In this document: positions 14,201 through 52,692 of the stretch, piece after piece
Layout: the number at the start of each line of letters is the position of its first letter
Numbering within the stretch: the stretch's first letter is position 1
NCBI GenBank assembly: GCA_949130485.1
Contig: OX422183.1
Location: 29,369,316 to 29,433,315, forward strand
Origin: Agelas oroides
Lineage: Eukaryota; Porifera; Demospongiae; Agelasida; Agelasidae
DNA length: 64,000 nucleotides
Direction of reading: 5' to 3'
The notes under the pieces: model-generated
The model's database searches: none
Told to the model about the DNA's origin: nothing
What the model saw: the letters and a program-made list of their open reading frames with translations, nothing else
Made by a program: the position numbers and the translations under genes

Positions 14201-14496
14201 TCAGTATTGATAGGCTTCATTTGTCTTCATTTCAATACCAGTCTTTACTGGTCTGTAGGCTATGCTCTCACTCAGTTCAATCACCTCCTCATACTCTGGA
14301 CCTGTTTGTTGCAGTGGATTGCAAGGTGATACTGGCTGCCGTGGTTTGGAGGATGATTTGGAGTTTTGGGAACGGTGCTTACTGATACAGTGGTACAATA
14401 GAGCTCCAGCAAGGACACCAGCTATGAAAAACACCACTGCAGTACCTGGAAATGCAATTCCAACAGCTGCACCAGTAGTGAGTGGCTCCACCACAT
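14201..14496 (-). CDS. gene 1 exon 7: transmembrane segment and cytoplasmic tail
   Basis: After ADVVEPLTTG comes a hydrophobic segment (GTAVVFFIAGVLAGALLYHC), a basic stop-transfer stretch (SKHRSQ) and a tail of about 60 residues rich in S, P and Y. The tail contains YEEV, then IAYRPV (fits the ITIM consensus I/V/L/S-x-Y-x-x-I/V/L), and ends NEAYQY. YEEV and YRPV are eight residues apart, a spacing seen in ITAMs, though ITAMs normally use I/L. The acceptor is a tandem AAGCAG, so the exon may begin at 14499 or 14496. Confidence 0.83.
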
Positions 14497-17400
14497 CTGC
14501 TTGAGGAGAGAAGTATATATGGTTTTTAGCATACAACAATTGTAATATTGTAGTATCAAGATGTCCTACTGTTACTGCTAAGCTCAAGGCAAGTCCGAGA
14601 ATAAGCAAGGCCGTAGACAAGTGGATGCTTGGGGGTCCTGAAGCACCCCCCAAATTTTTGGTATGTCTAAGTGAAGAGTATATCATGAACTAGCTATACA
14701 GTCATCAAGTGTTTTAGAAAGAAAAGGAGTGATACTGCTACCAGACGTTGGAACTGATCTGACCATAGCCAGACCATTATCAGGTGATTTTCCTTGGTGC
14801 TATCCGTGTTCGTCTTTTGTATGTTCTCGCTCTCAGACTGAAGAGCAATTCAATTCCGGTAGATTAACTGATGCCTTGATCGGTTGTAGTCATGCAAAAG
14901 AACACACAGGAACCTTCAGGTTGGAGGTATATTGCATTGTAGCTACCTGTTTGCAGCTGAAGATTGGCGAGAGCATTTCCTGACTGCTAAAGAGTAGGTC
15001 TAAAAATTTCATAACTATGTTTTAGTCCGTTGCATCAGAACATGCATGCTCAGAATCATCATCAGAAGACGGACTTTACAAAATTTTCCTGGGGGAGCAA
15101 GCCCCCAGACCCCCCCCCTCTGTGGCTGTGCACATAGCACACAGCACATAGCGCACAGCACACAACTTCTTATGATGTGCAGTGAAAGTTAGCACCCCCA
15201 AACTAAAAACCTTGTCTACAGTCATGACAAGGAACATACTAAATTAATGTTAGCAGCAAAAATCAAAAGGTAGCAGAAAAGACCCAGAGATTCAGATAGC
15301 TATTGAAGTTGTATCCATTGGGGTTGAAATGACAAGGCTAATTGCTATGCTTAACTTAGAATGCTCTTGAAGTTTTTTATTCAGTAACGGAAAGGCTGAA
15401 TGGTGAATGGTATGCTAAACTTTAGTATTTTGATCATTGACACATAGAAAAACCTTGTACAAAATCACTGATTCACGAGGCTAATAATTTCTCAAGGTAC
15501 ACAGAAAGAGCCCCAGGTACTTGGTTTACTGCATGGTCTCAAATGTGGGTAGTTTGCTCAGTAGTGCAGAAAAGCGAGAGAAACCTCAGCGTTTGAGTCC
15601 CAGGACTACTAGTTCCCTTATTCACTTGGTTTAGGAACACACTCTCACTTGAGCATTTGAAACTAAAATCTAGGGAGCTAGTGCTAAAAACTTGTTAGGA
15701 CAATGATTAACAGTCACAGAAATGAAGACATTTTACCGTCTTGTTCTAGATCTTGAAAGCACTGAGGTATACTGCCATTCCAAACACCATCACTCTGGCA
15801 CACCCTTGCTGTTCCACCATCCTGGTGAAAGCCATCATCGCAGCTGTAGACTGCCTCTGACCCTGCAGTATTTCTGCTGTAGCAGACCACACCATTAGGG
15901 ATGTTTGAACACTGTTTGACAGCATTGGTTGGAGTCAGGTCTGTGAATGAACATCCTGTGTACAAATTGTCATAATAAACCAAGTACATACCATATACAG
16001 TTTTTCCTACTATTACTTCTTGCATGTAGCTTCTGACTCCAATTTGGTTATCATTATGTGGAGTCAGTACCTGCAAGAAATTATTGAATTAAACAAAGCC
16101 TGGTATGGCATGACCCTATATACCATATACCTTATTTGACAGTGTACATATAATCTAGCCTCGTTCTCAGGCACTCCTCACTAACCAAACAATTGCAAGA
16201 GTTTAGACAATCAGGATGGTGTAATATCTGTGCATGATTGCTCTTGCTTTTGTGCCCTGGCTGAAGAAGAATCCTATCACACTAAATGAACATAGGTAGT
16301 CTACAGTATTCTACCTAAGAAACTGAAAAAGCATAGTGGTATGAATAAAGCAGTGCATGAACATGAGTATCAAATGTGTATTTGAAATTTTGAATATGCC
16401 GCTGATGATTACCCATGTTCTAAGACCAGTGATGTACAGCACACAAGCCCTTACTGGATCAGGAGAGGCATAGTTGAGACTAAGGGAACGTAAACACTCC
16501 CTCTCTACTCCAGACTCAAAATAGTGTTGAGGGGATAAAATACAAGCAAAATTGTTGCCTACATGCTAGATAGGTATAGCTACACCTCTGTGAGAAGGCA
16601 GGGATGATTGCTAAAAACACCAAAGCACAAGTTTGTTGCTCTTTCTAATAATTATAGAGATCATGCAAAACTATAAGGTCAAACTATCATGTTATATATT
16701 CACATACTGTATCCTGGTGTTGTGAAGGTCCCTTGCATGACTACAGTAACATCTCCACTAACTGCAGATACAGTGTAGTAGTACACAGTTGAGGAGTTCA
16801 GTCGTTCTCTCAGTACCACACTGACAGAGTCTCCTGCTGCACCAGACTCAGCAGACTCAGCAAAATATGGCAGGTTCATGTAGGTTCGGTCAGTCCCATA
16901 GTACACTTGACAGTGAGCAGATCCAGTGAAGCCACACAGAAATATACAGATAATAGTTGCATTGTTGGGGGAATGTACATCTGCTATTCTTCCAGCTATG
17001 AAGTTGCTGGTTGTGCCTACAAGAAGGAAGAAATTAAAACATTACCTATACATCAGTTTTGTTTCATCTATAGCCACCAAGTTACATCAGTCTTGAAACT
17101 TACACATAAATAGCAGTTAGTGCAAGACAGGGATTTGCAAACATAGTATGCCTGATGTAAAATTTTGATAAGCAAGAAACTGTTTGCAGTGAAGACAAAA
17201 CTAGTACAATGTGTTAAAATGCCCATGTCATAGTCTTTTATAATAAGGGTGAGCAATTACAAAACCCTATTGGATTTTGGTTATAGGGTACATACATGAA
17301 TAAATAAATGGTTCTGCAAGTGTATAGAACCAATAATGCATGGGTCAAACACTTGCACTACCTCAGTTCCTGCTGTTACTGTTAAAACTCTAAAAACTGA

Positions 17401-20135
17401 TCTTTAAATGACACATCCACATCACTCATCTTCCAAGTGCTGGTATTACGACAGGACTCATCAGGCCTCCCAGTGACTCAATGTGCATTGAATCAAACAT
17501 AACACTTAACTCACTGATAGGTTGTGTTGTACATGATCTTGTACCTCCCACTTCCACTACATTCTCAGCAACCACTGACACATGGTCATAGCTTGAGGGA
17601 GGATTTGAGGGTGGCTGAAAGGTGTGGCTACATTGCCCAGCTGTGCAACTTGCAATGTTCACATTCTCAGTATTCACTAGAGATCCAGTCTGGAAACTGA
17701 TCTTGTACTGTGTGATGTTGCCTTTTTGGCCTGGACATGTTTCCCTTGCATCCACTGGATTCTTGAAGAACAGTATCAGACTTATTATAATAATACGACA
17801 TGTGATTCAATATGGCAAAAAAAAATCAATTCTGAGAAGTTACGGTTTGATCCAATATAGTGCAAGCGATTATCAAATAATTATTAGTAAATCAAATTTA
17901 GCGCATAATTAGAAATGTAGTCTCTTCAGCTTTCGCAGCCAGTTTATTTTGTGACACGATAGTGCAATCAAGACACGTTCCAATAGAAAACTAGTCCAAT
18001 GCCTTTAGAAAAGGGCTGTTGTTGCCACTGTGTGCCGACAGCTTCACTTTGAAGTTTTAACATCAAAATATCTATAAATGAACACATTACTGTTATTCAA
18101 ACTTGTCATGACTTACTGGTACAGTATCCCAGATGCTCCTGATGAACAGAAGCCTCTTTGGTGATTGGTTGTATGATACTGTTACATTACAGCTGCCAGG
18201 AGCTGCAGGAACTGTAACAGAAATTAAAGTATAGGAATGTAGCTGCTATAGTGTAAGGGCTAAAGTATATGAGAGGTATCAACAGTGCATAATATATTTA
18301 CGTAGGTACACCACAAAGTTTTTATATTAATTTTGTATTATTATGAGACTAACCTCACCCCAAGTGGAAAGAAAAGAGAGGCTTCAATGCAGGTGGCTTG
18401 AATGCAGGTGGACAAATCAGCTTGTCCTGCCATAAAGAAATCATTAAGCTAACCCACTAGCTATGGTTAGTATGGAAGTCTGGCTAGATTAGGGCAAAAG
18501 TGGAACATGGAAAAGGGAATCAGAGTTAGGTGTACAATCCACTCAGGGGACTAAAGGCCTGGGTCTGTTTTTCGCGTGCACGCACCGAGATTTTGTGTGC
18601 ACGCCGCGTGTGGTTCTGTGGTTTGCGTAATAATCACATGACCTAGATGATTAGTTATGGACATGTTTTAGCAGTTGTTTCTGCTTTGTTGCTTCGTTGC
18701 TCCTTTGCACCGACTGGTGAAATGATAATGAGAGTGAAATTGTCGAAACCTACGTTAGGTGACTGTAGTATAAACAGAAGGCTGACCAATACCGAAAAAG
18801 GAAGGTGGTGGTTCAAGAAAAAAGTGGTCAGGCCAACACCTAGGTGGCATTGGCGGCTGGGCCAGTTTCAGAACCTTTTGAATATTTGAGCCTTAGGTGT
18901 GCAAAAACACCTAATATGCCTTTTCTCCGGAAGGATAAATGTCTCTGGTCAGCCCCCATGCAAAATTGACTGGTGCTAGTATCCAGTTCTGTAGTCATAA
19001 CAGACAGTACATGTACATTGGTACTTCTGGTCTACCAAAATCCAGCTTAAGAGACAAATTCTGTCAATGGAACAAATGATAATAAGTGGACCACATGCAA
19101 GCCTATAGTCTTTACATTGATACATACTTTGAGGAGTAATTGTCAGGGGCTCACTCATATGTCCCTTCTGACTCCTGCAGTTGACACCACATACTGTGAT
19201 GTTGTACTCATAGCCTGCCATAAAACCAGTCAGTTCATACTGTGTGACACTGGCAGTGGTGATGTTCAGAAGTCCTCCATATGGGGTCTGGGGAGCATTA
19301 GTGGTAATGTTGATGAAATAGAAATCAGCATTGTCTCCACCACTCAGAGTCCAGTTCACAGTGACGTTCACAGCTCCACTGGCATGTTTAGAGAGTCCAA
19401 TACAGGTGAGGGTGGGGAGAGAGGGAGAGCCTGAAGAAATGAGTCATCTTAGAGGTAAAGCATCGTACAGTCCACGAAGTAAATTATGTACAACTATCTA
19501 CTTACTCTATCTTTACACAGGAATCAGATTTACACTTTCTAATATGTGGCTATGTGTATGGCATAGGTCTTTATATGTTCAGCATACTGAACACCTGCCA
19601 CAGCTCTCTTCATTGTTTCAAACAGTGGAGCAGTTAATGTTTCCCTCAGATAGCTAGTCAAGTCTCAGGTAATCATATTATCAAAAATGGTCACTTATCC
19701 ACCAAATTTGTATAGTGATAGTGCTATAAGTTAGCCATCCTACAAAAAGAAAAGTTATTAAGTTATTATATAAGACATCCTGACCTAATATCTGGAGGGC
19801 ACTGTCTCCAATTTTGTTTCCAGGGTCTACATTGTTGGCTGGTCCATAACACTCAACCAGTATACCATTCAGTGCAGGGGTTGCAGTGCCACTCAATGTT
19901 GATGAGAATGAAGTAGCAGTTGTTGCAAACCCACTCCCAGACCTTGCTGTGAAGACACCTTCTGGCGAGCAGTGATAAGAGGATGTTGATCTATGTACCA
20001 GAGTACATCTAAAGCTATCACTACTGTTCACTCTCCAGATGGTGAACCCATTCATGTCCCCAGTAACGGTACAATTGAAGGTGAAGGTATCACCGGGACA
20101 GGTAGGAGCTGTAATCAACTGGCCGGTAACAATAC
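14201..20135 (-). CDS. receptor gene 1: Ig-like / FN3 / sushi transmembrane protein with tyrosine-motif tail
   Basis: Seven exons on the minus strand, in coding order: 20135-19785 (Ig-like), 19430-19128 (FN3), 18211-18117 and 17761-17515 (second FN3, split by a phase-0 intron), 17016-16708 (third FN3-like), 15940-15737 (sushi), 14496-14201 (transmembrane segment, tail, TGA stop). All have GT-AG borders. Modules are bounded by phase-1 introns and phases agree throughout, giving about 600 codons. The signal-peptide exon was not found. Every extracellular exon has a same-phase partner in receptor gene 2, with the third FN3 exon exactly 309 bases in both. The product should be a type I cell-surface protein; ligand and partners are unknown. 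A role in adhesion or recognition is inference from the modules. Confidence 0.85.
15737..15940 (-). CDS. gene 1 exon 6: sushi (CCP) domain
   Basis: 68-codon phase 1-1 exon. Cysteines fit the sushi pattern: QCSNIPNGVVC, YSCDDGF, RVCQSDGVWNGSIPQC. Aligns with gene 2 exon 41767-42015. Confidence 0.87.
16708..17016 (-). CDS. gene 1 exon 5: FN3-like module
   Basis: 103-codon phase 1-1 exon. NSSTVYYYTVSAVSG near its end is the usual FN3 F/G strand signature. Includes AHCQVYYGTDRTYMNLPY, shared with gene 2. Confidence 0.82.
17515..17761 (-). CDS. gene 1 exon 4: second half of FN3 module 2
   Basis: Phase 0 to 1. Starts NPVDARETCPGQKGNITQYK and ends near YDHVSVVAENVVEVGG, typical FN3 strands. Donor GTGAGT. 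Confidence 0.84.
18117..18211 (-). CDS. gene 1 exon 3: first half of FN3 module 2
   Basis: 95-base exon between CTGTTACAG and GTAAGT, phase 1 to 0, coding VPAAPGSCNVTVSYNQSP and ending IWDTVP. Same length and phase as gene 2 exon 38476-38570. Confidence 0.82.
19128..19430 (-). CDS. gene 1 exon 2: FN3 module 1
   Basis: 101-codon phase 1-1 exon. NVTVNWTLSGGDNADFYFIN and YEYNITVCGVN fit the B/C and F strands of fibronectin III. Acceptor TTTCTTCAG is shared with gene 2. Confidence 0.86.
19785..20135 (-). CDS. gene 1 exon 1 found: Ig-like domain
   Basis: 117-codon phase 1-1 exon. PGDTFTFNCTVTG, then TIWRV, then VECYGPANNV give the Cys-Trp-Cys order of an Ig-like fold. The acceptor TTTTTGCATAG aligns with the gene 2 acceptor. 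No in-frame ATG lies directly upstream, so the leader peptide is on an unseen exon. Confidence 0.83.

Positions 20136-21944: not shown

Positions 21945-21977
<33 letters not shown>
21945..21977. repeat. poly-G run (33 bases)
   Basis: Thirty-three consecutive G bases, able to form a G-quadruplex and prone to length error. Confidence 0.95.
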
Positions 21978-21979
<2 letters not shown>

Positions 21980-25105: not shown

Positions 25106-25125
25106 TGTACGCATGCGCATATCCA

Positions 25126-31562: not shown

Positions 31563-31569
31563 TACTAAC

Positions 31570-38500: not shown

Positions 38501-41500
38501 CATCACTCTGTTATATGACCAGTCATCACGAAGGTTACAGTCTATTGACACCACCTGGGATTTGATACCAGTATGTCACACAACAGGTTTTGTCTATTTC
38601 CAAGTGATGGGTGTACCTATTACATTGCTAGTTTCAAGAGGTGATTAAATGTAACCAGCACTAGTGAGTGGGTGCTCCAGTGCAGTTATGAGATGCAATC
38701 AGGAGGGAAGCATGAGCACCTGCTGTGGTAGGATGAGTCTGAAGATATAGACAAGCCAGGTTGCTTGCAGAATAGCCTCTATAGTATGACTACCTTCTGC
38801 TTGATAACGTTAATCCATGACATTGAAGATGTGTCATGCATTTTTTTTACATATGGCAGCTCACAGACAATAGAAAATTAATGTTTCTGCTCCTAGCTAT
38901 AATACTAACTATATGCAATGGTGAAGACACTGCAAAGAGCTTCAATCAGTGGCAATGTACTATGGTTTATGTACAAGAAAAAGATGTGATCGTGCGTGAA
39001 GCCTCATATACCGTAAATTTTAAATGAGCGCATTCACGAAGATCCTACGAAGCATGTTACTGCCCGAGTGCAGCGTCGGCGACCCGGAGCGAAGACAACT
39101 GAAGTTAAAGCACGTGTGGCAACTTATTTCTGGTTTGTGCTTCTACCGACCATCAACAGCAGGCCGCTCACAGGCGGTACAAAATATGGACAGTGGTTGA
39201 GGTTGCTTCAGGTAGAGCCAGTCATGCATGGCATGAACGGCACTCATAAACGCCAGAAATCCAGCTCATGATTTCATCGTAAAGCTTAGTCTATGCATGT
39301 GTAGCTACATTAGCTGCCATGGCTGGAGAAATGGCTGGCATATGTGATATACTTGGCTATCTCGGTAAGAACTTAGCTACTTGTGTGTTTTGAAATTTGG
39401 CTGTAGTGACAAATCCTGCTATATGCCATGACAAATTAGTAAACCAGCAAGCAAAAATACTTTCAAAGCCTCCTGTGAATGGTAAAATGGATGTGCATGT
39501 AGGAGGATGATTGACTTGATGTATGACATAATATCCTGTATCAGCTTGCTCAGGCTCGCCCCCACAATGTTCTACATTTTCTAGTTATTTTTGTTCTTTG
39601 TTTTGCTTGTAAGTTCAGTGTAATTCAGTAAGTTTCAAACTTCTCCCTAGCTCCAGAATCCAGTGGACCCACAGGGGGCATGTCAAGGCCCAAGAGGAGT
39701 CACCAGACAATACCAGATCAGATACCAAATCGGATCTTTTAAGGTTTATGAGAATGTGAACACTACTGCATGCAGAGCTGAGAGGTGTAACCACACCTAC
39801 AATCTCCTGACTGTTGACAGTGTACCCTCTAGCTATGACAGTGTGTCAGTGGCTGCTGAGAATGTTGTGGGATTTGGAGCTGCAAGAACATGTACAGCAC
39901 AAACTATCAGTGAGTTAAAAACATATGTAGCAATCCATGCAGAGATGAGAAGTGCAGCCACATCTATAATTCCTGCATGAATGTTGACACCCTCAAGCTA
40001 TGACATAATTTGTCAGTAGCTGCCCGAAATGTACTTTGCATCACTTCATTACTTATTTTGTCAGTGCATGTTTTGGTTAACTGTAATATTAGTGCTGGAG
40101 AGCCTGTTTAGTAAGTAGTGAAGCCAGGTAAGACTTTATGGAAAATCTCTGCCTGTTGAGTAGCAGTAAGTGTAGGCCACATCTTTCTACTCACATCACT
40201 CTTGGGAAAGGCAGAAAGAGGTGAAACTAGTTTGTGATCAATAACTTGGCAAAATGTGTCATAGCTGTAAGTAACAAGTGAGTAAATAGGCAAATCACTG
40301 CAAAGTATACTTATGAGAATAAATAAAAAACAAATTACTTACCTAGCAGTGATCAGTTATTTAGACAAACTACTCCAGCCTTAGAGTTGCACACTATCTA
40401 TGCAGGTCAGGTCACTGGACTTGCTGAGCATGAGTACATGACCAATGCTTGTCACTTTGACCTCAGACTGATAACAGTGATAGGGATGTAAAGACGTTAT
40501 TGTTGTACACGGTGTAAATTAGCTTAGTTCATCTGCTACATGTATGTGTGAGTCAAATGGTGTACAAACTTGTGTATGAGTTGCAAAATGTGAAGTGCCG
40601 GCACATGTAGCTACTCTTCTAAGTCTATATTTTTGGTAGAATGACGTCCTTATTTTGTGCATATAGGTACAACCAACAATCTTCTAACTGGAGAATTGGT
40701 AGACCAGAACTCACCCAATGATGCAGTGCTTATGTGCACTTTTCTATGTGAGTTCAATGGCTCTGCTCACTGTCAAGTTCAGTATGGAACTGACCCAACC
40801 TACATGGACCTGCCATACTCTGCTGAGTCTACTGAATCTGGCACAGTAGGGGACTCTGTCGGAGTTGTACTGAGGGAACAACTAAAATCCTCCACTACAT
40901 ATTACTATAATGTGTCTGCAGTTAGTGGATATATTACTGTGATGGTACAAGGAGCCTTCACAACACCACAATACAGTAAGTATTTACATGTCTGATTTAG
41001 TACAAACTATGAAAGGAACATAATCTTTGTGTATACATAATCATGTGCATGGATATATTAGTCTCAGCAATTTAGTTGTTGCTTGTAAAGATAAACATAA
41101 CCTGTCTTGTCAGTCTTGTGTACATATTTAGAAGATTAGTATAATTAAGACTGCCAAGTGTAGTCGAAAAGTTACAATACTGGTGTATTACACTTTCATC
41201 TAGTTATATTTTAGAGCACACCAGTACACCGCTATATGCTGCTAAGTGCACCATGTAGTATGATAATATCAAATGTATGGATGGCCAAAGTACGTAGCTT
41301 TGTGCATGCAAAAACTTTAGAGCTGGAGTTTAGCTACTAATTCAAAGCCTCTCTGTTGAACATTACCTACAGTAGAAACACAAAGCAAAGTCTTCTTACA
41401 TCAATACTCAATAGTCAACTAAAAACGTTTTCAAATGAAAACAAGCACATGTAGGGAATGAATTTTCAAAAAGCTTATGAAACACTCTAACTTCTTTCCT

Positions 41501-44500
41501 AACATGGACAGTGACATCTACATTTCTCATTGATAAGAACACACTGAAATGTTAATTGTGCAACTATTAACCCATCACAATTGCATTAACTAACACGTAC
41601 CAAGTAACAAGCACCACATAGCATGGTTAGATGCATGGTACTAAATGTAGGGATGGTGTAAAAAATATCATAGAGCGTTCCCACCTAGTTAGGTTGCTTA
41701 TTGTGAATCCTACATAAATTTGTTCTTCCTTGAAAACTTTTTGCATTTTCTCATTATGGTATGCAGTGTGCAGTGAAGAAGCTCTTACTGATCAAGGTGG
41801 GACAGCAAACTCTACAAGGTGTACAGACAGAGGACTTGCTAACAGCTTGTCCATCCCTGATGGTTTGGTCTGCTATAATGGAACTACTATAGGATCTAGG
41901 GCAGTGTACATCTGCAATAATGGTTTCATTGTGATGGGGGGTGCGGCCACAAGGGTCTGCCAGAGTGATGCAAATTGGAATGGAAGCACACCCCATTGTA
42001 TCCCAGAGGGAAAAGGTATGTACTCTAGCCAATAACATCCACTTCAGAATGAGTACCGTTTTGTGTCAGGTTTTGTATTGATGTACATTATTTACATGCT
42101 GATAGTGGGGTGTTTGAAGAAATTTGATCATCCAAGCCGCAATGTGATCAAAAACTGGATTACACAAAGGCCTGAGAACAACACCAGTGACAATGGTCAT
42201 TGGATAAGTTTTATATGATACTTGTCCACCTTCTATGCTTTTATCTGAAGCTGACTTGATAAGTTGATATAGGCCTGGAGGAAGAAAGGAAAAAGATGGA
42301 TGAAATTCTTACTTAGCACAAATCGTTTGCCACATTTGCAAGGGAGTACCACAAGGCAAGTAGTGGTGTCAAACTTCGGTAAGTCCTCTCTCTCAGGCTG
42401 GAGAATAAAACATTGTGCATACATGTGCACTTTTGTGGCTTTTCATTCACCATTCATTCATTCATTCATTCATTCATTCATTCATTCATTCATTCATTCA
42501 TTCATTCATTCATTCATTCATTCATTCATTCATTCATTCATTCATTCATTCATTCATTCATTCATTCATTCATTCATTCATTCATTCATTATTCATCATT
42601 ATTTTTTTCTTTCCACCTGGGGTGTAATCTTTTTTTTTACATGTCTGCAATGTCTGTAAAATGATTTGACACTGGATTTTTGGCTGGCATCGTAACCACT
42701 TCTGGATAATTGCTCATGCTACTACCGTAAAGCCTTATCCCTATATGACAAAATGCCAACCCAGGACTGAAATTAGTAAGTGGGGTGTAAACTATAGTGA
42801 TACTTCCTGCAACTGTGTTACTGGTTTAGATTTGCTCATGGCTAAGATACAGGTATAGGCTCACTTGTCTATTTATAACCTAGGACCGTTAGATTTACTG
42901 TTTTAAAACGTACATATCAACCTGACCATCCTTTCTGCTATTCATGTGTGTATGCATGTGTATGCGTGTGTGGGACTTTAGCATGAAGCACATACTGTTG
43001 GTTCAGAAAAAATGTAGATGCCATCGAAGTACCAAGAAAGGGGAAAAGTGTGCATTGTAGCACTTTGTACACACATTCCTGAATTCAGAATCACCTCTTT
43101 GATGACAACTTCCTTTTCCACTGACTTCAATTCTCGTCTTAATTAAAGCATGAAGAGAGTACAACTATAAATACAGTGTCATACCTTTGTTTCGAGGCCA
43201 CTGCCTCAATTTTTATTGCACTGTATTATGTAACAAATGTTTTGAGAGATATGTAGAATGTTGAACAGGTGGGATTCATTTAATAAGAGTTCAGCTGACT
43301 AATGTCAGGAACCAGACAGACCTGGTGTTTACTGACAGGTCGCTAGTTATGAAAGTTTAAAATCTGGGGTGTTACTGGTTACCTAGTGGTGGTTGAACTG
43401 CTGGAGTATGAACCAAAAATGCCACACTAACAGCACAGAGTTTTTAGAGTGTACCAAGCATTGAACATACATTGAGAAGAAGGTTTACCCTGGTGTCTTT
43501 CAGAGGGGATGTTTTTCCTTAATACTGTCTTTAATTGTGCTATTGAGATTTCATGGGTGAACCCTAATCAAGCCAAACCAAATTACAGCATCCCAAAAAA
43601 TCAACTGTAGATAACTTTGTTATCTACAGATCAAATTGGAAGTGTTGTTGGTGGTATCATTGGAGGAGTTGTTGGAGGTTTCATTGGAGTATTGCTGACA
43701 ATCATTGTGATGGTAGTTTTGGTAAGTTATTTATACTTATTTAATTTGATCGGCGGAAAACAGAGAGTAATAATGCTTTCTAAAACCTGCAGCAGATTTA
43801 GTGTGTGCACAAAGTGTACACCATTTTATGACTCGGTTGACTGTTCTGAATACTAGTCAGACACACTTACCACTAAACCACTTGGACCCCTGGCAGAGGA
43901 GCGGAAGACAAGCTATATGAGCAGGATTGCCTAGAGGCCTGCAAGTGGCCTGCACTAGACTGTAAATTAATATCTCATGATGCTCCTGAGCATCAGTGAT
44001 CATTCAACAGCATGATATTTGGAAGATTCACACACACTTTTTTTGTTGTTGTTTGCATGATAAAGCTTTGTCAATGTACAAATCTACAAGTGGGTACTGT
44101 ATCTATCTGCACCATCACTTCACCCTTGCTTCTGCTTTTCACTAGTCCGTACCATGGAAATGTAGAATTAAGAGCTTGACAATGTGGCTATTTCGATGTG
44201 AATTTAGCTGCACCATTTATGAAGTGCTTCTTCCATGCAAGTGCCCACACCCTAAGCTTCCTGTTTCTGCTAAAGCACCCAGTGGTCACTATGGTGCTCA
44301 ATGTGTAATTATTGTACTACTAAATGAATCTCATATTTGTTTGCATTTAGCTAACAAAGAAGAGAATGCATCAGGGGAAAGAGGTAAACAAACCCATGTA
44401 GCATTAGTGTCCATGTACATATATCTTTCTCTCTTTTACTTAGAATGATAGTGTGTGTGTAGGTACTGTATAGGTAATTTGTTTGATATAGGAATGGCAT

Positions 44501-47500
44501 TTTTCTGATTGTGTGCACTACTCCTTCTTCAAAGCCAGTTGAGAGTCTATGGAAAGTGATGCTGATAGGCTAGCTAGTTTATAAATAAAAGACGAAAACA
44601 AAAGCCTGCCAGCACCATCCCAAGTGGGTGGCTATCCTAGTAGATATTTATTAAGTTAGCAGATGGTTCCAGCTCATGGGAATGATCATCATGTCCACAT
44701 GTATTTATAGTTCAATAAAGCATTCCAATTTCAGTTTAGATGTCACATATACTAAGTAAGCCTACAAATTGAAGATAGTTAGTACAATAATACAAATCAT
44801 CCATATTGTGCTCTCTTTGATTTTAGTTACAGGTGGTTGAATTGCCTTCTCAAGCAGAGGTAACAAACCTAAGCAACATTTATTACCTTGTTTGCATGGT
44901 ATTCATGGTTGCTTAGACGACTCACAGTTCTATGTGACCACACATGCAGGGAAACATTATTATGATTGAAGTACTCTGTACACGGGAATGGCAAGGGGTG
45001 TAGTCACTACATAGAAAAACTAATTATTATGCGGAATGACATGACAAATAAGCCAAGGTTTTTTTGCAGGAGGCAAAGAAAGATAAAGCTTTCTCTAAAT
45101 TGCCTGAAGTAAAAAGAGTGCTTAAAAAAAGGAACTTGCTAAAATGGACTTCCCACTGTTGGCTTCATACCAAATTCATAAACGTACACTGCTTTCCCAG
45201 TTGCCAGTTGCATGCAAACAATACAGAACACTCTATTAGAAGGATTCTTCTCCATTATGAGATTACTCATCACTACTGCTGAACTTAACATACTCTTAAC
45301 ACTAATACTGAATACCAAAGTTGAAGATACTAAGCTTCCTTCTTGCCCACCCTGAAGAAAAATTTGTCTTATGTTATCGTGGCTGGCAACACCAAATGTT
45401 CTCTAACTCATTTTAAGCCCTGTTATCTATGTGTAGCCTTAGCCTTCTATGCTAGTGTTCCCCATGTCTCCAACACTGATACCTCCCAGTTGTTAGCAAG
45501 TCTACCAACTTCTGCAGTTTTATATATTTAACATGCAGTAATGCCTGCAAAGTCAGCGATTCAATTGTCTAAGGAAGCAAACTGAACATCAGAATTGTAA
45601 ATCAGTTCCTAACACTAAGCTTAACTTATTGTCACATCTATCTGATTTGTGGTGAATGTTTGTTTCCTGCTGTTTATCAGAACCTGCACAAGGCAGCTGA
45701 AATGGGCCAGATGAGCAGAGTTATATTTTTTGTTAAGGATGGAGCTGGTGTGAACATCAAAGATGCTAAAGAGGTATGTGAAACTGTATTAAACTAGTAT
45801 TGATAATTTCACTTAGTCCAATTTCCAGCCTTCACCTGAGAAAGGGCCCTGTATCCATGCATTATTGTTCCCAAGTACATTCAAGATCACTGCTTACAGC
45901 TACACAGATAAATAAATAGGGAGTTGGCCTGAGTGCCTATATAGGGAGATGCCAGATTTGATACCTACTTTGGAGCTGGGGAATGTACTTATAGTGTGCA
46001 TGCTGATTCATCTCATAAAATGCCAGTCTTCAACCTCCTTCTATACTGTACACACAAAATGTTTAATTGTAGCTAGAGTATGCATGAATACCACTTGAAC
46101 CACAACATCAAGGATGTTGTACGTAAATTAGTCTGTGTGGGCCCATATAGAGAAGGGGGTGGAGACCGAGCATAGAACACGAGACCGAGAGATGCACTCC
46201 CAACGCTAGTGGTAGGCTGGCGAGCTTCAGCGGTGAAGGGCGAGGGGGCGCTTCCGCGAAGTATCTGGCATGTCCATCATCATTGTGGGCGGTCCAAGGT
46301 AGACACTTTCAACTGTAGATAATCAAGTGGCTTAAATAGACTTTAATCTCAATATATCGAATTACGGATGATTCTTCTGAGAATTCTCTGCATATTGTGT
46401 CACCACCTATCACTCCACCTGACCAACCTGACGTTATTGCATGTGGCTAAATCTCCAAGGCCTTCCTTCTCCCTTTTTGCATACTGCAAATGTACAAAAA
46501 CTGGAGTTGGGGGAGGCCTGGAAATGAGGCTAAGTAGGCCTAGCTGTATTGCCTGCACATGCCTTTACCGGCTATTATCGATGTCTCCAAATAAGATAAA
46601 TAGGTGCCACTTTCAAATAATGAACCCTTAAATAGTAGCTACGCAAAAACAAACAGTCAAAAAAACTGTTCTAAATAGTAGCTACAACATATGATTTAGG
46701 AAGTACAGTATATGTATGTATTCTCGTACTAAGCCACATGGGAATGGGTAATTTTGATTTCTACGTGGTCTGGGTATAAGGCTAAGCTTTTTTATTACTG
46801 TATTTTCCTTGAAATAAGGTATGGAATACAATGCTAACGAAAAAGGTGATGTCAACAATGATGTATTGGTGTGTATGAGAATGCATTAGTTTAGTTGGCT
46901 TCACTTCTAGGCACACACAAAAAGGTGTATCATTATCAATACTGTTTCATAATAATATTAGTTCAAAAATGCCTGACAAGTCTGTCAATCTTTAGATCAT
47001 GCTGGCTAGTTATGAAACTGTGTTTAGAGATTTGTATTCTTCTCTCAATTAGAGGACTCCCCTGCACATGGCAGTGAAAGGAGGCCATATGGACATAGTG
47101 GAATACCTTATTAAGAGTGAAGCTGATATCAACATCAAAGATAATAAGGGGGTAAGCACATATATGATGAAGTTATGAATATTTCTGATGTAGAGTGCAT
47201 CAGCCTGCCTCATTATCATTACCAAAGAAATTGTCTACTGTTTATGTATGCTTAATCATTTTAAAACAAATGTAATTCAATCTGCCATGCTGACAAACAA
47301 CAATAGTAACTACATATTTGTTCCATTCTCTCCATCAGTGGACTCCCCTGCACATTGCAGCTAAACAAGGTCAACAGGACATGGTACAATATCTTATTGG
47401 CAAAGATGGTAGTATCAACATCAAAGATAAGGATGGAGTAAGTGAACGCAATGAGGGCAGATTGGTCCTGTTGTTTGAGATAACTTCAACTATTTAATAA

Positions 47501-50500
47501 AGGTTCACTGTTTTAGCATGTGTACAAAATGTAACGAATTTGTGTAATTCTAAACTAATAAAAAGGCAACCAATATAAACCATTCTCTCCATTAGAGAAC
47601 TCCCTTGCATGTGGCAGTTGAAGGAGGCCATTTGGATACAGTGAAATATTTCCTTGAAAAGGGAATGGATATCAACATCAAAGAGTCATTTGGTGTAAGT
47701 CTATAGGAGTACACTACTGAAAAAGTCAAGGGTGCATCAACCACAAAGGGAAGGGGGCAAGTATCTCTGCAAATGGCAAGAATTCTGTTCATGAATTTTT
47801 GACAGCCACTGGTACACTTTGTTGTATGTAAACCTCTCACCTAAATCCACTGCTAGCACTTATCCCTGCCATTGTGCACCCTATGCTTGGTTAGCAAACT
47901 CTCACAAACTTCACCATTGAGTATGTGCATGGAGGTGGTCATAAGCAAAGCCTACTGTAAGTATTTATCTGTGTACAATGCTCATGGCATTTTGGACAAA
48001 CAGGGCATATTACTGCCAGTCATCTACACATGGATGGTAAGCTACACTGCCCCATAGCATCACGCTTTCTCTGTCTCTTCAATTTAAGACTGCTTGTGCA
48101 AAGCAGTTTGCTCTTTGATGTCTAGCATAAATATACCATATCCAGCAACCGCATTTAAGATTTTTTCATTCACATCACTAAGTATGTAAGTTACATGCCC
48201 TCTCGCCACCTTGAGCAAATTGATAAGCCCTTGTGAAGATAGATTAGCACTGCTGACTTCACTTTGAGTGCACCTCATCTCGAGGCACCAATTATGTACA
48301 CTGTTTTATAACAAACAGTAGCAAAATACTAATCATTTTCTCCATCAGTGGACTCCCCTGCATATTGCATCTAGACAAGACCGAAAGGACATAGTGGAAC
48401 ACCTTATTGAGAGAGGAGCTGATATCAACATCCAAGATAGCATTGAGGTACATGAAAGGGTGTTTTTGCATGCATAATTTCTTTACAAATGTGTGTACTT
48501 TTGTTTATCTCTCCATCAGAGGACTCCCTTGCACTGGGCAGCTAAACGATGCCATTTGGATGTAGTGAAAGCCCTCATTCGTAATAAAGCAGATATGAAC
48601 GTGAAAGATGAAGATGGGGTATGTGTATGAGACTACACTGAGGGTAGATTATGAGTAGTGATGTACCCTCATTAGTAAGAACTAGAGATTTTTGCAATTC
48701 TGTCTGTTACACTAATGCAAAAACAATAAATGCTTGCATGTTCATTTTCCTTCTATTAGCGTACTCCCATACATATGGCAGCCAAAGGTGGTGACAGGAG
48801 CATAGTGGTACATCTTGTTGAGAAAGAAGCTGATGTCAACATCACAGATGATACTGGGGTAAACATAGAATTTAGGTCACACAAAATTAATTTCCTGTTT
48901 CTGGTTTCAGCATGCAACCACAGTATTCACACAACCTGCACCTTGTGGATTCACACTTCTGCATTTACACTTATGTACATGCTTCGATACACAAGTTCCT
49001 GCATTTTGCAGTGTCATGCCTGCACTGGATTGTCTGATAATGCATTCTGCTGCTTGTACATTTAAGTTTAAGACACCACTTTTCATTGACATATGTTGCT
49101 TGATCATGTAGAACCAGAAACAGGAAATTAACTTCATTTGGCTTTAGTAGTAATTCCAGTCATCTGAGAAAGGGGCCTGTACCATCATTTATGCACGCAC
49201 AATTATTCAGAATTTTGATGTGTATCATTTGTTACAGCCATCTCACTACCTGCTATAATGGATACGTTTTAGGGTGAACAGTTCCAAAGTAATGATACAA
49301 TAATGCTACAATTTATGTGTAGAAAATTATGCAGGTGTGGAAAAACAGGACTCAGAATTTAATCCTTGTTTATGTGTTCTATCTGTAGTATGCATTTGGG
49401 GGTCTATTTTTTAGGCTTCAATACCTCATGCATGCAACTTAAGCTTCTTAGCATGAATACTTGGTGACTGAGAGTTTGGACTACTTGGATACTGTGTCGT
49501 TTATGTTGAACACACACGTTAAATTTTGACTGATATGCCTACATTTTACATTTTGATGAAGCAGGCATTCCTCCTGCTTGCAAACTTTCATTAGCCACCT
49601 TGACTGTTTTAGCCCCATAACACAGCTCCAGAAAAACCTCAGAAGTAATCACACAACTTCATAATTCTAAAATTACAGGAGAGTGTGAGGTATAGTCTAA
49701 TGCCCAGACCCTTAGTAAGAAAAAGAGAGTCTAGTGATTACACATTGACAGACCATCTGCTAGCTGTTGATATATGATTTGAATTTGCTTGCTCAGCTTC
49801 ATTAAATTGGACATGTGTAAAGTAGGTCTGTGGTGAATATTTGTGGTGAGAAAGCCCAGTAGTTAATTGCCCAATGAGCCAATCAGACTCTTACCTCTGA
49901 AATTACTTCTTACTAAGTGTTAGGGAGCAAGATGAGGTCTGGAGATAGTGCACCACTTTAAAAACATCATCATAGGTGTAAAATCAGTCTGTACACTAAC
50001 CACCCTTCAATCTATCAAAATTACTTTGGTTGATTTTTCAACTGTGTGTTTGAATGTATCTGTTCACCAGAGAACTGCCCTGTATGTAGCCGCTGAAGAA
50101 GGCCAACTGGACGTAGTCAAATACTTTGTTGACGGAGGACTCCACATGGGCATCAATTCTAAATATAATAAGGGGGTAAGTATACTATGTAGTGGTTAAC
50201 CCACAAGCTGCAAGTGTGTATTGCATCTATTAAAACCTGAGGGCATTACACTTAGGAATACATACTTACACAGATAGCACGGGTGAGGGTCGACAAGACA
50301 ATTGTATGCCTTTTACGTATAATGTGCATGGCTTTAGTGAAGCTTTTAGTGAACAAAGTCAATTCATTTCATTATGTACTACGAGATTTTTGTCACTTAC
50401 ATTACAAACCTATGTGGCCCAGGTTGTTGTCCCACAAAGCAAATTACTTCACTACCTTCGCACCAACAATTGCTGATGATTACCCATGATACAAGACCAG

Positions 50501-52692
50501 CAGTGTTGCATTATTTGGATAGCTGTGACATAGTCATTGTGAAGACAGCACGTGAGTCCTCACGTTGAACTATAGGGGGACTTACATTATATAGTATGAA
50601 AGACTACATACTGATACACTGCTGGATTTGTATAGCTTGTGCATTCAGAAGAAAATTTGCAATTCACTTGGCAAGTGTACCAATTTGTGAATCATTTTGG
50701 CTACTCCTGTAACTAGTATGCTTTACAATTTGTTTCTCCCACTTCATCAGAGAACTCTTCTGTTTGGAGCAGCTAAACGAGGCCATAAAGACACAGTGGT
50801 ATACCTTGTTGACAGTGGAGCTGATATCACCCTCAAAGATACTATGGGAGTAAGTACATGTATGTAACTACAGCACTGCTGATTTCATTTTCAGTGAAAA
50901 ATTTATTTAAGAGTGTCAAAAATGCTTTAGTCACAGAGAAAGCCTTTTCTATCGTTGGTCATCAGTCCTCTCCTAACAAAGCATTTGCAATTTTGCCTGA
51001 TGACTCCGCACCTTATAACTCCCACCATGCATCAAGCATGGTTGCTGAGCTTCTTAGTCTGACTGCAGCAGGGTCCTAGGAGGACAAGTACTACAAGTTG
51101 TATTAAACACTGATAATACAACTGTATTAATCAGTCTTGAATTACACTTGTCTGGGATTTGTTGATATCACATTTGCTTATTAAATTCCATGTTTTATTA
51201 GTGAATGTTTCATTCTTTCCATCAGAGGACTCCCCTGGATATAGCAAAAGAAGAAGGTAACGTGAAGATAGTGGAATACCTCAAGAAAGTGTCGAGGGTA
51301 AGTATATAAGACTGTACTGCTGATCCAGGTTAGCAGGTAATAATTACCTTTCATTTGATCCCACTGGTCCTTATAGGCTGCATTGTTGAGAACTTTGATT
51401 AGCTTGTCCATGCCATATAGACAAACGGATTTACTTAAACTTGCACATAATGGCATGGACAAGCTAATCAAAGTTCTCAACAATGCAGCCTATAAGGACC
51501 AGTGGGATCAAATGAAAGGTAATTATTACCTGCTAACCTGGATCAGCATGGTAAGGTCTACTTTCGGAAGACTGCTTAGCACACAAGCTGAGCCGTGAAA
51601 CCTTTGCCTGTACTCAAAATATAACTATAAATGGCTACATAGGTGCTCACTCAGGCTCCCTCCCCATCAATACATTACTTCTTTATTTTTTCACACTAAT
51701 AAGGCTATCCCTGGACTATCTGCACTTCAACTTCATACCATGTATGTAGTAGATGCAGAGGTATATTCTATGTGAAATGTAAAAACCTGCATCTATGAAT
51801 GTACATCACTGCATGGTTGTCGTGAGACTACAATATAGCAGACATCAGATAGCTACATGTGTTCCAGACTGGTGCAACTGTTGAGGTCCAGGCTTCTTAG
51901 TCTCTGCTCCATTATCTCCTCCTTTTTTCAGGCTCTCTGGCTCTCACGTCACTTGAGCCTTTGTTGGCATTAACAAAGCATCTCTGCTAGCTTTTATGCT
52001 GATCCACACCATGTGAACTTGGATGTTTCTGCATCTCTTTCACCCCTTTGTTGTTTATGGTCAATGGTGGTGTGGTCTTTAACACACCAAAATAAGCAGC
52101 AACTGGAATGAATGGTTACATGTGCTATGGCTTTATGTAATGCACATATGTAATCTAACAATAATATTTAACCCAGTGAACAAAAACGTACAAACGGACT
52201 TACAAACAGACAGTGAAATTTTGTATAGACTACATTTAGTATGAGGCTTTTCAGGTTTGCGGACAAGTACCCTGCCTACCAATGTTTTACACACCACTGA
52301 CACTGTACCCCCCCCCCCTCCCACACACACACACACACACACACACAAACACGCACACACGTGCACATCACCACACTATCACACATACATGCACAGAAGC
52401 CACAGGGAGAGGAGGAGGTGGAAGGGACAACAGTATAAGAAATAATGAACATATAATTAAGGTAATTGCAGCCCAGTATGCAAGAGAGAAGATTCATGTA
52501 AACAGAGCAACTATACCAGTAATACAGAAATCACTTGGAATCCAATCTGAGTCCATATTACATAGTGCTATGGTGCACCTAGTGAAGGTCTCGTTCACCA
52601 ACACTGAGTGTGGGAAAGTGGTGCTAAATGGTAAAACTCTTATGGTCTCTGAGTTTGCTCTTTGCTCCTTCATTTATTCATATTTGAAGTAG
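32501..52692 (+). CDS. receptor gene 2: Ig-like / FN3 / sushi transmembrane protein with ankyrin-repeat cytoplasmic region
   Basis: Exons: 32501-32552 (leader core), 34860-35207 (Ig-like), 37960-38265 (FN3), 38476-38570 and 39657-39909 (split FN3), 40667-40975 (FN3-like), 41767-42015 (sushi), 43630-43721 (transmembrane), 44351-44383, 44827-44859 and 45070-45108 (juxtamembrane), ten ankyrin exons 45681-51297, then tentative 51377-51518 and 52472-52692. Extracellular modules use phase-1 introns; after the membrane segment every exon to 51297 is phase 0, and no stop interrupts about 906 codons from 34860 to 51297. The extracellular part parallels receptor gene 1, while the cytoplasmic part is unrelated to that gene. 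It should be a type I surface protein with an intracellular ankyrin scaffold. The start codon exon was not found. That one transcript joins the membrane half to the ankyrin half is inferred from phase continuity and lack of any stop or promoter between them. Confidence 0.75.
32693..33660. repeat. tandem array of 255-310 bp units, about four copies
   Basis: Units starting near 32693, 32948, 33232 and 33541, each with T(A/G)TGGTTT.ATCTCTCTTG. Most units also contain GGTAGGGATGATG... and CCATCCTTACATC, matching the palindromic MITE at 25.6 kb. Lies in the first large intron of receptor gene 2. Confidence 0.85.
33660..34850. other. intron sequence; partial MITE
   Basis: A fragment opening TACCGTATAACTGG (about 33658-33790) is related to the ACCGTATAGC MITE at 23.4 kb. 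The rest shows no supported gene. Confidence 0.45.
34860..35207 (+). CDS. gene 2 Ig-like exon
   Basis: 116 codons, phase 1-1, acceptor TTTCTCTCCAG. PGDTFTFRCTVTG, TTWKVAG and VECFGPANNVD parallel gene 1 residue by residue, with the same Cys-Trp-Cys order. Confidence 0.86.
35208..37959. other. intron; contains GGAAT-rich foldback
   Basis: A palindromic element at about 36365-36930 has TGCTGGAATGCAATATGGAA on the left and a matching complement on the right. Nothing else is supported. Confidence 0.55.
37960..38265 (+). CDS. gene 2 FN3 module 1
   Basis: 102 codons, phase 1-1. NITVSWTLSGGDSADFYLI and YEYNITVRGVNCGSQEG match gene 1 exon 19430-19128. Confidence 0.87.
38476..38570 (+). CDS. gene 2 FN3 module 2, first half
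   Basis: 95 bases, phase 1 to 0. VPAAPSSCNITLLYDQSS opens it and TTWDLIP closes it. Donor GTATGT. Confidence 0.83.
38881..38920 (+). other. orphan signal-peptide-like exon in a gene 2 intron
   Basis: ATG-initiated MFLLLAIILTICNG followed directly by a GTGAAG donor in phase 1, the phase needed to join Ig, FN3 or sushi exons of this family. It lies in the phase-0 intron inside FN3 module 2, so joining it to the next exon (39657) would break the frame. Confidence 0.4.
39657..39909 (+). CDS. gene 2 FN3 module 2, second half
   Basis: Phase 0 to 1. NPVDPQGACQGPRGVTRQYQ to DSVSVAAENVVGFG. An alternative acceptor six bases upstream (CCCTAG) would add two residues in frame. Confidence 0.85.
40667..40975 (+). 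CDS. gene 2 FN3-like module 3
   Basis: 103 codons, phase 1-1, same length as in gene 1. Contains AHCQVQYGTDPTYMDLPY and KSSTTYYYNVSAVSG. Confidence 0.86.
41767..42015 (+). CDS. gene 2 sushi (CCP) domain
   Basis: 83 codons, phase 1-1. RCTDRG, IPDGLVC, AVYICNNGF and RVCQSDANWNGSTPHC give the four-cysteine sushi pattern. Fifteen residues longer than the gene 1 exon at its N-terminal side. Confidence 0.87.
42451..42590. repeat. (CATT)n microsatellite
   Basis: About 35 units. Its uninterrupted frames are not genes. Confidence 0.97.
43630..43721 (+). CDS. gene 2 transmembrane exon
   Basis: 92 bases, phase 1 to 0. DQIGSVVGGIIGGVVGGF then IGVLLTIIVMVVL: a single glycine-rich hydrophobic span with GxxxG-like spacing, which in other receptors favours helix packing. 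Donor GTAAGT. Confidence 0.83.
44351..45108 (+). CDS. gene 2 juxtamembrane exons (three short phase-0 exons)
   Basis: 44351-44383 codes LTKKRMHQGKE, with the basic cluster expected just inside the membrane. 44827-44859 codes LQVVELPSQAE. 45070-45108 codes EAKKDKAFSKLPE and ends at a weak GTAAAA donor. All have AG acceptors and keep phase 0, joining the membrane exon to the first ankyrin exon. Confidence 0.6.
45681..51297 (+). CDS. gene 2 ankyrin block: ten repeats, one per exon
   Basis: Exons 45681-45773, 47053-47151, 47339-47437, 47596-47694, 48349-48447, 48520-48618, 48760-48858, 50071-50175, 50751-50849 and 51226-51297, all phase 0. Most are exactly 99 bases (33 residues). Typical content is RTPLHMAVKGGHMDIVEYLI and WTPLHIAAKQGQQDMVQYLI, with DINIKD at the repeat end. 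The first exon (NLHKAAEMGQMSRVI) is a capping-type repeat and the last (RTPLDIAKEEGNVKIVEYL) is shortened. Ankyrin stacks bind proteins; the partner here is unknown. Exon-per-repeat structure fits growth by exon duplication. Confidence 0.9.
48887..49131. mobile_element. 237-bp TTAA-flanked MITE in an ankyrin intron
   Basis: TTAA at 48887-48890 and 49128-49131, ends TTTCCTGTTTCTGGTT and AACCAGAAACAGGAAA. Lies in the intron after the seventh ankyrin exon. Confidence 0.82.
51319..51547. repeat. perfect 97-bp inverted repeat with 35-base spacer
   Basis: 51319-51415 and 51451-51547 are exact reverse complements by eye. The right arm carries coding-like sequence (KLIKVLNNAAYKDQWDQ) and a GTAATT donor. 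Confidence 0.93.
51377..51518 (+). CDS. gene 2 tentative exon across the palindrome
   Basis: Acceptor TCCTTATAG at 51376 and donor GTAATT at 51519, open in phase 0 to 1, so it continues the ankyrin frame. Content from the right arm, LLKLAHNGMDKLIKVLNN, looks like a diverged helical repeat. The first 39 bases are antisense copy of its own 3' end, so the true exon start is uncertain. Confidence 0.35.
52322..52362. repeat. (CA)n microsatellite
   Basis: CA repeat with interruptions, after a short C run. Confidence 0.9.
52472..52692 (+). CDS. gene 2 tentative terminal exon
   Basis: After GTAATTGCAG an open stretch in the needed phase 1 codes AQYAREKIHVNRATIPVIQ and ends LCSFIYSYLK then TAG. No domain recognised. 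Phase agreement with 51377-51518 is the only link. Confidence 0.3.

What the first reader, a model, noticed from the sequence alone, without database searches (positions are those of the whole stretch)
14201..52692. Paired divergent receptors: same ectodomain plan, different signalling tails
Genes 1 and 2 share an Ig-FN3-FN3-FN3-sushi-TM order with the same exon phases and near-equal exon lengths (95/95 and 309/309 bases), yet gene 1 ends in a short tyrosine-motif tail and gene 2 continues into ankyrin repeats. They lie head to head, 12-15 kb apart. The layout recalls paired receptors of vertebrate immunity, where similar ectodomains feed different signals. That comparison is inference.
Basis: partly seen in the sequence, partly recalled or inferred. 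Interest (0 to 1): 0.85.

Follow-up and report, generated by a model that had tools for sequence, protein, structure and literature searches.

The report
Opposed receptor pairs, two signalling tails
Two neighbouring genes of an animal, probably a sponge, encode surface receptors with the same outer design but different inner tails, and they belong to a large one-chromosome family in which the two tail types mostly run in opposite directions and share their outermost parts, much like the paired immune receptors of vertebrates and sea squirts.

Summary
Gene 1 (minus) and gene 2 (plus) both read Ig-FN3-FN3-FN3-sushi-TM across homologous, open, in-phase exons. Gene 1 ends in a tyrosine-motif tail; gene 2 continues into ten ankyrin exons. 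Two more genes nearby repeat gene 2's plan. The genome shows at least 68 related Ig exons, all on one chromosome. Tail class follows strand: at 18.5-21.5 Mb tyrosine-tail matches are mostly on plus (43:8 of those entered) and ankyrin matches all on minus (0:27); in the window's cluster this is mirrored (0:7, 30:0). Of 8 head-to-head pairs with both tails assigned, 6 are mixed; head-to-head order itself is barely above chance. Genes 1 and 2 are not sisters. The sushi exon tracks tail class (p=3e-5), the Ig exon does not; between classes, synonymous divergence is lower in Ig+FN1 than nearer the membrane, and one FN1 tract is shared across classes. This is the exchange signature of paired receptors. 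Closest analogues: Siglec-11/16, CEACAM, Botryllus FF/FcoR. Species, ligand, signal and expression are inferred or unknown.

The parts
19785..20135 (-). gene 1 Ig exon (351 nt)
   Evidence: open, AG/GT, homologous to gene 2
19128..19430 (-). gene 1 FN3-1 exon (303 nt)
   Evidence: Pfam fn3
18117..18211 (-). gene 1 FN3-2a exon (95 nt)
17515..17761 (-). gene 1 FN3-2b exon (247 nt)
16708..17016 (-). gene 1 FN3-3 exon (309 nt)
   Evidence: not named by Pfam
15737..15955 (-). gene 1 sushi exon (219 nt)
14201..14499 (-). gene 1 TM + tyrosine tail + stop (YEEV, 8 residues, YRPV; IAYRPV fits the recalled ITIM consensus)
   Evidence: 113 matches to this exon in the genome, self included
34860..35207 (+). 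gene 2 Ig exon (348 nt)
   Evidence: fold
37960..38265 (+). gene 2 FN3-1 exon (306 nt)
   Evidence: 0.1 bit below the Pfam cut-off
38476..38570 (+). gene 2 FN3-2a exon (95 nt)
39657..39909 (+). gene 2 FN3-2b exon (253 nt)
40667..40975 (+). gene 2 FN3-3 exon (309 nt)
41767..42015 (+). gene 2 sushi exon (249 nt)
   Evidence: tracks tail class in the family
43630..43721 (+). gene 2 transmembrane exon (92 nt, ends in phase 0)
   Evidence: similar TM exons in genes A and B
44351..44383 (+). gene 2 basic juxtamembrane exon LTKKRMHQGKE (33 nt, phase 0)
   Evidence: splice signals only
44827..44859 (+). gene 2 linker exon (33 nt, phase 0)
   Evidence: splice signals only
45070..45108 (+). gene 2 linker exon (39 nt, phase 0)
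   Evidence: splice signals only
45681..45773 (+). gene 2 first ankyrin exon (93 nt)
   Evidence: read
47053..48858 (+). gene 2 ankyrin exons 2-7, each 99 nt, phase 0: 47053-47151, 47339-47437, 47596-47694, 48349-48447, 48520-48618, 48760-48858
   Evidence: Pfam Ank 1.2e-83
50071..50175 (+). gene 2 ankyrin exon 8 (105 nt)
50751..50849 (+). gene 2 ankyrin exon 9 (99 nt)
51226..51297 (+). gene 2 ankyrin exon 10 (partial repeat, 72 nt)
   Evidence: read
10570..10665 (+). lone open copy (96 nt, phase 0, AG/GT) of gene 2's first ankyrin exon, inside a region 76% alike over 10252-10743
   Evidence: no ectodomain or further ankyrin exon beside it

Best explanation
Genes 1 and 2 belong to a large receptor family whose detected ectodomain matches all lie on one chromosome of an animal (probably a sponge; inference). 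The four members read in full share an Ig-FN3-FN3-FN3-sushi-TM body and carry one of two inner tails: a short tyrosine-motif tail or an ankyrin-repeat tail. The two tail classes are mostly encoded on opposite strands and often lie head to head (shown from match maps). The outermost domains (Ig, FN3-1) are exchanged or homogenised between classes while sushi and tail keep their class (shown on four genes, and by rank tests over the family). The likely working (inferred) is that of a paired-receptor system: both classes present related binding faces to related ligands; the tyrosine tail is phosphorylated and recruits SH2 proteins, possibly a phosphatase through IAYRPV; the ankyrin tail docks a different scaffold or effector; the cell integrates the two. 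Head-to-head order would favour joint expression of a pair. Role: recognition of self, non-self or microbes.
For: Exon models open and in phase. Two more genes with the ankyrin plan on the same strand. 68 substantial Ig-exon matches of 75, all 75 on C1, 81 of 81 candidates scored. Tail by strand at 18.5-21.5 Mb: tyrosine tail found behind 20 of 25 plus-strand and 4 of 24 minus-strand Ig exons (Fisher 1.2e-5), ankyrin behind 0 of 25 and 10 of 24 (2.4e-4); mirrored at 27.8-29.45 Mb: tyrosine 0 of 11 plus and 4 of 6 minus (0.006), ankyrin 7 of 11 and 0 of 6 (0.035). The 17 best non-self sushi matches within the clusters all lie on the ankyrin-class strand (24 against 16 matches, p 2.9e-5). Synonymous differences per site (pS), Ig+FN1 against the rest: gene 1-gene 2 0.277/0.453 (p 0.0004), gene 1-gene A 0.284/0.530 (0 of 5000 shuffles). 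A tract of about 95 nt in FN1 of gene A (ankyrin) agrees with gene 1 (tyrosine) at 20 successive informative sites, 0 of 20000 shuffles; outside FN1 gene A agrees with gene 2 at 190 and with gene 1 at 90 sites. dN/dS 0.36-0.52 for four gene pairs.
Against: No RNA, so splicing, co-expression and secretion are unproven; no signal exons found. Tails of 22 of 68 Ig exons are unassigned, 2 of 8 fully assigned pairs are Y/Y, and 4 of 24 proximal minus genes carry a tyrosine tail, against the strand rule. Assignment rests on distance (30 and 90 kb limits); a wrong-strand, wrong-direction control still found a tyrosine tail within 30 kb for 16 of 68. Head-to-head neighbours number 20 against 16.9 expected over all 68 (95% range 13-21), and 16 against 12.2 in the proximal cluster (p 0.03). 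In the window's own cluster 1 of 4 head-to-head neighbours is within 30 kb. Linked duplications are not independent events. The within-class pair gene 2-gene A also shows lower pS in Ig+FN1 (0.282/0.382, p 0.03), so part of the effect is not between classes. The orphan tail copy has MAYRPV, which does not fit the ITIM consensus. No ligand is known.
Confidence: 0.6

Rival explanations
1. Two interleaved tandem arrays in opposite orientation. Strand-tail association and head-to-head neighbours are by-products of local duplication; there is no functional pairing, and exchange of outer domains is ordinary concerted evolution among linked paralogues.
For: Counts of head-to-head neighbours are near random strand order; genes 1 and 2 are not sisters; recent segmental duplication is visible, gene A/gene B 99.0% alike over 13 kb.
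Against: Sharing between classes is concentrated in the outermost exons while sushi is class-specific; 6 of 8 fully assigned pairs are mixed and none is ankyrin/ankyrin; in the proximal cluster 32 of 49 genes lie in head-to-head pairs within 30 kb.
Confidence: 0.25
2. Adhesion or tissue-recognition proteins rather than immune receptors: the ankyrin tail anchors to the cytoskeleton, the tyrosine tail signals adhesion state.
For: Ig-FN3 ectodomains are common in adhesion receptors (recalled), and sponge IgSF work has centred on adhesion (PMC11999971, passages).
Against: Family size, clustering and mosaic outer exons are more usual for non-self recognition (recalled); but the two roles are not exclusive.
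Confidence: 0.3
3. The gene 2 model is wrong: the membrane exons and the ankyrin exons are two genes.
For: No transcript; linkers of 33, 33 and 39 nt rest on splice signals only and were not located in genes A and B; 2 kb from TM to first ankyrin exon.
Against: Genes A and B have the same order, strand and TM type with ankyrin exons behind; ankyrin matches lie on the same strand behind 17 of 68 Ig exons.
Confidence: 0.05

Closest known systems
Botryllus schlosseri fester family (FF) and fester co-receptors (FcoR), fuhc locus (PMC12065747, passages read)
   Same: Large invertebrate multigene families; Ig and sushi domains outside; FcoR tails with ITIM, hemITAM or a Y-x-x-I/L/V core motif; each FF gene lies next to a cognate FcoR.
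   Different: No ankyrin tail and no FN3 domains in the passages read; fester and uncle fester carry no known signalling domain and work with FcoR chains, whereas here both classes carry a tail.
Siglec-11/Siglec-16 and CEACAM1/CEACAM3-type paired receptors (PMC5701461 abstract; PMC5112662 and PMC2832619, start of abstract in the listing)
   Same: Similar extracellular, different cytoplasmic parts; for Siglec-11/16 gene conversion keeps the ligand-binding exon alike.
   Different: Vertebrate, inhibitory against activating; no ankyrin tail (recalled); the animal here is probably not a vertebrate, and no opposing signal was shown.
Xenopus FcR-like (XFL) paired receptors (PMC2413239, passages)
   Same: At least 75 genes, domain shuffling, birth and death, YxxV/L/I motifs in tails.
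   Different: The alternatives there are ITIM tails and adaptor-bound TM regions, not ankyrin.
Hydractinia Alr family in the allorecognition complex (PMC11999971, passages)
   Same: 41 IgSF genes in one invertebrate complex.
   Different: [quoted passage not shown] no ankyrin class mentioned there.

Membership tests
paired receptors | similar ectodomains | tested here: met
   six homologous exons, 50-67% protein identity between genes 1 and 2
paired receptors | different cytoplasmic parts | tested here: met
   tyrosine tail against ankyrin repeats
paired receptors | genomic clustering | tested here: met
   68 Ig exons on C1: 49 at 18.5-21.5 Mb, 17 at 27.8-29.4 Mb, 2 elsewhere
paired receptors | binding exons kept alike by exchange while tails differ | tested here: met
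   four genes read, the rest by match scores; which exon binds ligand is not known
paired receptors | opposing activating and inhibitory signals | not testable with these tools
   needs expression and signalling assays
paired receptors | expression in the same cells | not testable with these tools
   no RNA data
paired receptors (strict: the two partners are closest relatives) | genes 1 and 2 are sister genes | tested here: not met
   rank 39 and rank 32 in each other's Ig lists
ITIM/ITAM receptors | canonical ITIM or ITAM | tested here: inconclusive
   IAYRPV fits (I/V/L/S)xYxx(I/V/L); YEEV-8-YRPV has ITAM spacing but V where L/I is usual (consensuses recalled); the orphan copy has M at -2
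Ig superfamily | Ig fold of the first domain | tested here: inconclusive
   Pfam sub-threshold; model pLDDT 61, best matches antibody V domains at E 6e-3

The most novel reading that the evidence does not exclude
An early-branching animal carries a paired-receptor complex spread over one chromosome: repeated head-to-head units of one tyrosine-tailed and one ankyrin-tailed receptor, whose outermost domains are drawn by gene conversion from one shared pool while the membrane-proximal part and tail stay class-locked. It would be an allorecognition or microbe-sensing complex that evolved independently of the vertebrate leukocyte receptors and the Botryllus fuhc locus, and the first in which ankyrin repeats form one of the two outputs.
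Probability: 0.38. Interest if true: 0.93.

Novelty: new variant of a known kind. Interest (0 to 1): 0.8.

Why it matters
Sponges are long known to tell self from non-self grafts (recalled), but I know of no described receptor complex for it. A clustered family with two alternative intracellular outputs, mostly on opposite strands, and with outer-domain sharing is a concrete, mappable candidate, and it makes directly testable whether paired-receptor logic (same binding face, different signal) arose repeatedly in animals. An ankyrin output was in none of the listings or passages that I saw (searches; passages or abstracts of five papers); most subscription papers are not in that library.

Tried and rejected
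Signal-peptide exons: scans for ATG-hydrophobic-donor exons and blastn of the upstream regions gave no shared candidate. The end of gene 2: the ORF at 52240-52692 has no Pfam hit at its cut-off; the stretch just after the last ankyrin exon holds a perfect 99-nt inverted repeat. Relatives in other collections: none confirmed in GTDB genome contigs or IMG/VR (one scan each). Counting ankyrin-tailed genes by protein search failed, because other ankyrin genes of the genome fill the list (124 of 1537 candidates scored); DNA of the ankyrin blocks worked (each 40 of the candidates scored), while most extra matches come from a dispersed repeat inside the query. Idea dropped: gene 1 and gene 2 as a recent local duplication. 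Idea dropped: tails as splice alternatives of one gene (opposite strands, 14.7 kb apart). FN3-3 fold: model too poor. Death-fold idea for 61559-61927: no support in Pfam or PDB sequences. Corrected on checking: I had called the ankyrin-exon copy near 10.6 kb broken; it is open.

Rows left out before counts: I entered 107 of the 113 tyrosine-tail matches (left out: five further repeats inside two open frames near 20.57 and 20.79 Mb, all minus, which would make 43:13 instead of 43:8, and one on C113) and 61 ankyrin places (of 59 and 68 matches; the others on C1 were overlapping or neighbouring places of the same blocks and, read through by eye, on the same strands; those on C3 and C10 were left out). 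In one search, 40 of the 149 non-self sushi matches, those within the two clusters (150 of 790 candidates scored). From, 68 of 75 matches (left out: seven weak, distant or fragmentary ones, all on C1). Ectodomain searches were capped: 83 of 947 candidates scored, 85 of 974. In the rank tests class was set by the strand rule, not by the tail found.
Full report
What was checked. Both genes were rebuilt exon by exon. All six ectodomain exons of each gene, its TM exon, and gene 1's tail are open, bordered by AG and GT, and join in one frame. Gene 2's TM exon ends in phase 0; three small phase-0 exons (33, 33, 39 nt; LTKKRMHQGKE is a basic, stop-transfer-like stretch) precede ten ankyrin exons, seven of them 99 nt, in phase 0 (first and last read). 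Pfam names sushi, FN3-1 and ankyrin, but the Ig is sub-threshold and FN3-2 and FN3-3 are unnamed; the Ig model is of modest confidence and resembles V domains. Signal exons and the 3' end of gene 2 remain unknown.

The family. The genome holding the window (259.3 Mb, 141 contigs) was searched. All listed ectodomain matches of gene 2 (89) and gene 1 (102) lie on contig C1; both lists are capped, 83 of 947 and 85 of 974 candidates scored. The Ig exon of gene 2 alone gave 75 matches with all 81 candidates scored, all on C1; 68 are substantial: 49 at 18.5-21.5 Mb, 17 at 27.8-29.4 Mb, two outside. The tyrosine tail gave 113 matches, all but one on C1. In fetched sequence next to the window two further genes, A (Ig at C1:29221563) and B (Ig at C1:29295855), repeat gene 2's plan on the same strand, with similar TM exons and nine ankyrin exons each by the scan; their linker exons were not located. 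The ankyrin link is thus replicated in three genes.

Tail follows strand. Assigning to each Ig exon the nearest same-strand tail downstream (tyrosine within 30 kb, ankyrin within 90 kb, no same-strand Ig exon between) gave 29 tyrosine, 17 ankyrin, 22 unassigned and none with both, of 68. At 18.5-21.5 Mb tyrosine tails stand behind 20 of 25 plus genes and 4 of 24 minus genes; ankyrin behind 0 of 25 and 10 of 24. At 27.8-29.45 Mb it is mirrored: tyrosine 0 of 11 plus and 4 of 6 minus; ankyrin 7 of 11 and 0 of 6. By match places, tyrosine tails are 43 plus and 8 minus (13 with the repeats that I left out) in the proximal cluster and 0 and 7 in the distal one; the ankyrin places entered are 0 and 27, and 30 and 0. 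Control: looking for a tyrosine tail on the wrong strand and side finds one for 16 of 68, against 29 the right way. There are 20 adjacent head-to-head Ig pairs; of the 8 with both tails assigned, 6 are mixed, 2 tyrosine/tyrosine, 0 ankyrin/ankyrin. Against a strong reading: the number of head-to-head neighbours is not above random over all genes (20 against 16.9) and only modestly so in the proximal cluster (16 against 12.2, p 0.03; 32 of 49 genes in pairs within 30 kb). Short gaps in such pairs are partly expected, since they exclude the gene bodies. Linked copies are not independent, so p-values overstate.

Not sisters, but sharing outer parts. Gene 1's Ig is rank 39 in gene 2's list and gene 2's rank 32 in gene 1's, self counted as 1. 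Ig similarity to gene 2 or gene 1 does not depend on tail class (p 0.82 and 0.97, class by strand rule). Sushi similarity to gene 2 does: the 17 best non-self matches within the clusters all lie on the ankyrin-class strand (24 against 16 matches, p 2.9e-5; proximal cluster alone 0.003, distal 0.04); this was run for gene 2's sushi only. On four genes read in full, synonymous differences per site are 0.277 (Ig+FN1) against 0.453 (rest) for gene 1-gene 2 (p 0.0004) and 0.284 against 0.530 for gene 1-gene A (0 of 5000); within the ankyrin class 0.282 against 0.382 (p 0.03) for gene 2-gene A and 0.045 against 0.101 (p 0.02) for gene A-gene B. So the outer exons are less diverged in every pair tested; in absolute terms the gap is widest between classes. 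Inside FN1 of gene A a tract of about 95 nt agrees with gene 1 at 20 successive informative sites (0 of 20000 shuffles); outside FN1 gene A agrees with gene 2 at 190 and with gene 1 at 90 sites. Genes A and B show a sharp border: 99.0% identity over 13 kb up to FN1, then 77-95% in the aligned pieces, so exchange or duplication is recent there. The ectodomains are under purifying selection overall (dN/dS 0.36-0.52); four sequences are too few to test sites for diversifying selection.

How it may work. Shown: body plan, two tails, strand rule, sharing of outer exons. Inferred: membrane receptors of one ligand class read out by two pathways. Gene 1's tail holds YEEV and YRPV with eight residues between, and IAYRPV fits the ITIM consensus (recalled), so SH2 docking is likely; an orphan copy of the exon at C1:29087781-29088077 keeps YEEV and YRPV but reads MAYRPV, which does not fit. 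The ankyrin tail would dock a scaffold or effector. Opposing signals are a guess.

Comparison. Siglec-11/16 are kept alike in the ligand-binding exon by gene conversion while their signals differ (PMC5701461, abstract). Botryllus FF genes lie next to cognate FcoR genes, with Ig and sushi outside and tyrosine motifs inside the FcoRs (PMC12065747, passages). This system works like these in layout and exchange; it is not shown to be a member by signal. An ankyrin output was in none of the passages or listings I saw.

Organism. Unnamed. C1 is 32.7 Mb and C2 26.2 Mb, and listed matches lie on contigs numbered up to C23 and on C113; this recalls the freshwater sponge Spongilla lacustris (248.7 Mb, 23 chromosomes, the largest 31.14 and 22.15 Mb; PMC12141999, passages), but sizes differ. 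A demosponge is an inference.

Change on checking. Confidence was lowered slightly (0.62 to 0.60, novel case 0.40 to 0.38) because the orphan tail breaks the ITIM consensus and because of the 16-of-68 control.

Noticed in passing
window 12531-13056 and 13147-13672: 526-nt inverted repeat, 98% complementary, 90 nt apart; very similar ORFs recur in L022:9048-9906, so probably a dispersed foldback element.
   Followed up: partly
window 51318-51416 and 51450-51548: Perfect 99-nt inverted repeat just behind gene 2's last ankyrin exon; it may have overlaid the original 3' exon.
   Followed up: partly
window 26251-29339 (-): Several adjoining ORFs (up to 427 aa) between the two genes; four of them were scanned and none has a Pfam match at cut-off. 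Looks like a repeat-borne coding unit.
   Followed up: partly
window 5013-6029 and 9087-10118: Inverted pair of a 1-kb repeat, 90% alike; the second copy lies between two stretches (8939-9034, 10252-10914) that match gene 2's first-ankyrin-exon region.
   Followed up: no
C1:29086175-29088077 (L035): Orphan tyrosine-tail exon (89% to gene 1) beside an ankyrin-exon match, with no ectodomain match in the 50 kb fetched: resembles window 10-14.5 kb.
   Followed up: partly
C1:19622105-19634744 (one search places): Many FN1-type matches close together on the minus strand, several in long open frames: a tandem array.
   Followed up: no
C1:20904830-20906314 and 20943107-20943931 (one search places): FN1 to FN3 in one open frame (510 and 311 aa): members that seem to lack introns there.
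   Followed up: no
C1:29148398-29162465 (places): Ankyrin block of this family; the nearest Ig-exon match upstream on its strand is 179 kb away.
   Followed up: no
window 61559-61927 (+): Isolated 122-aa ORF, death-fold-like by eye, 9 kb behind gene 2; no Pfam or PDB sequence support.
   Followed up: partly
C3:17578083-17688886 (one search places): Ankyrin matches in open frames of up to 5971 aa, close together.
   Followed up: no
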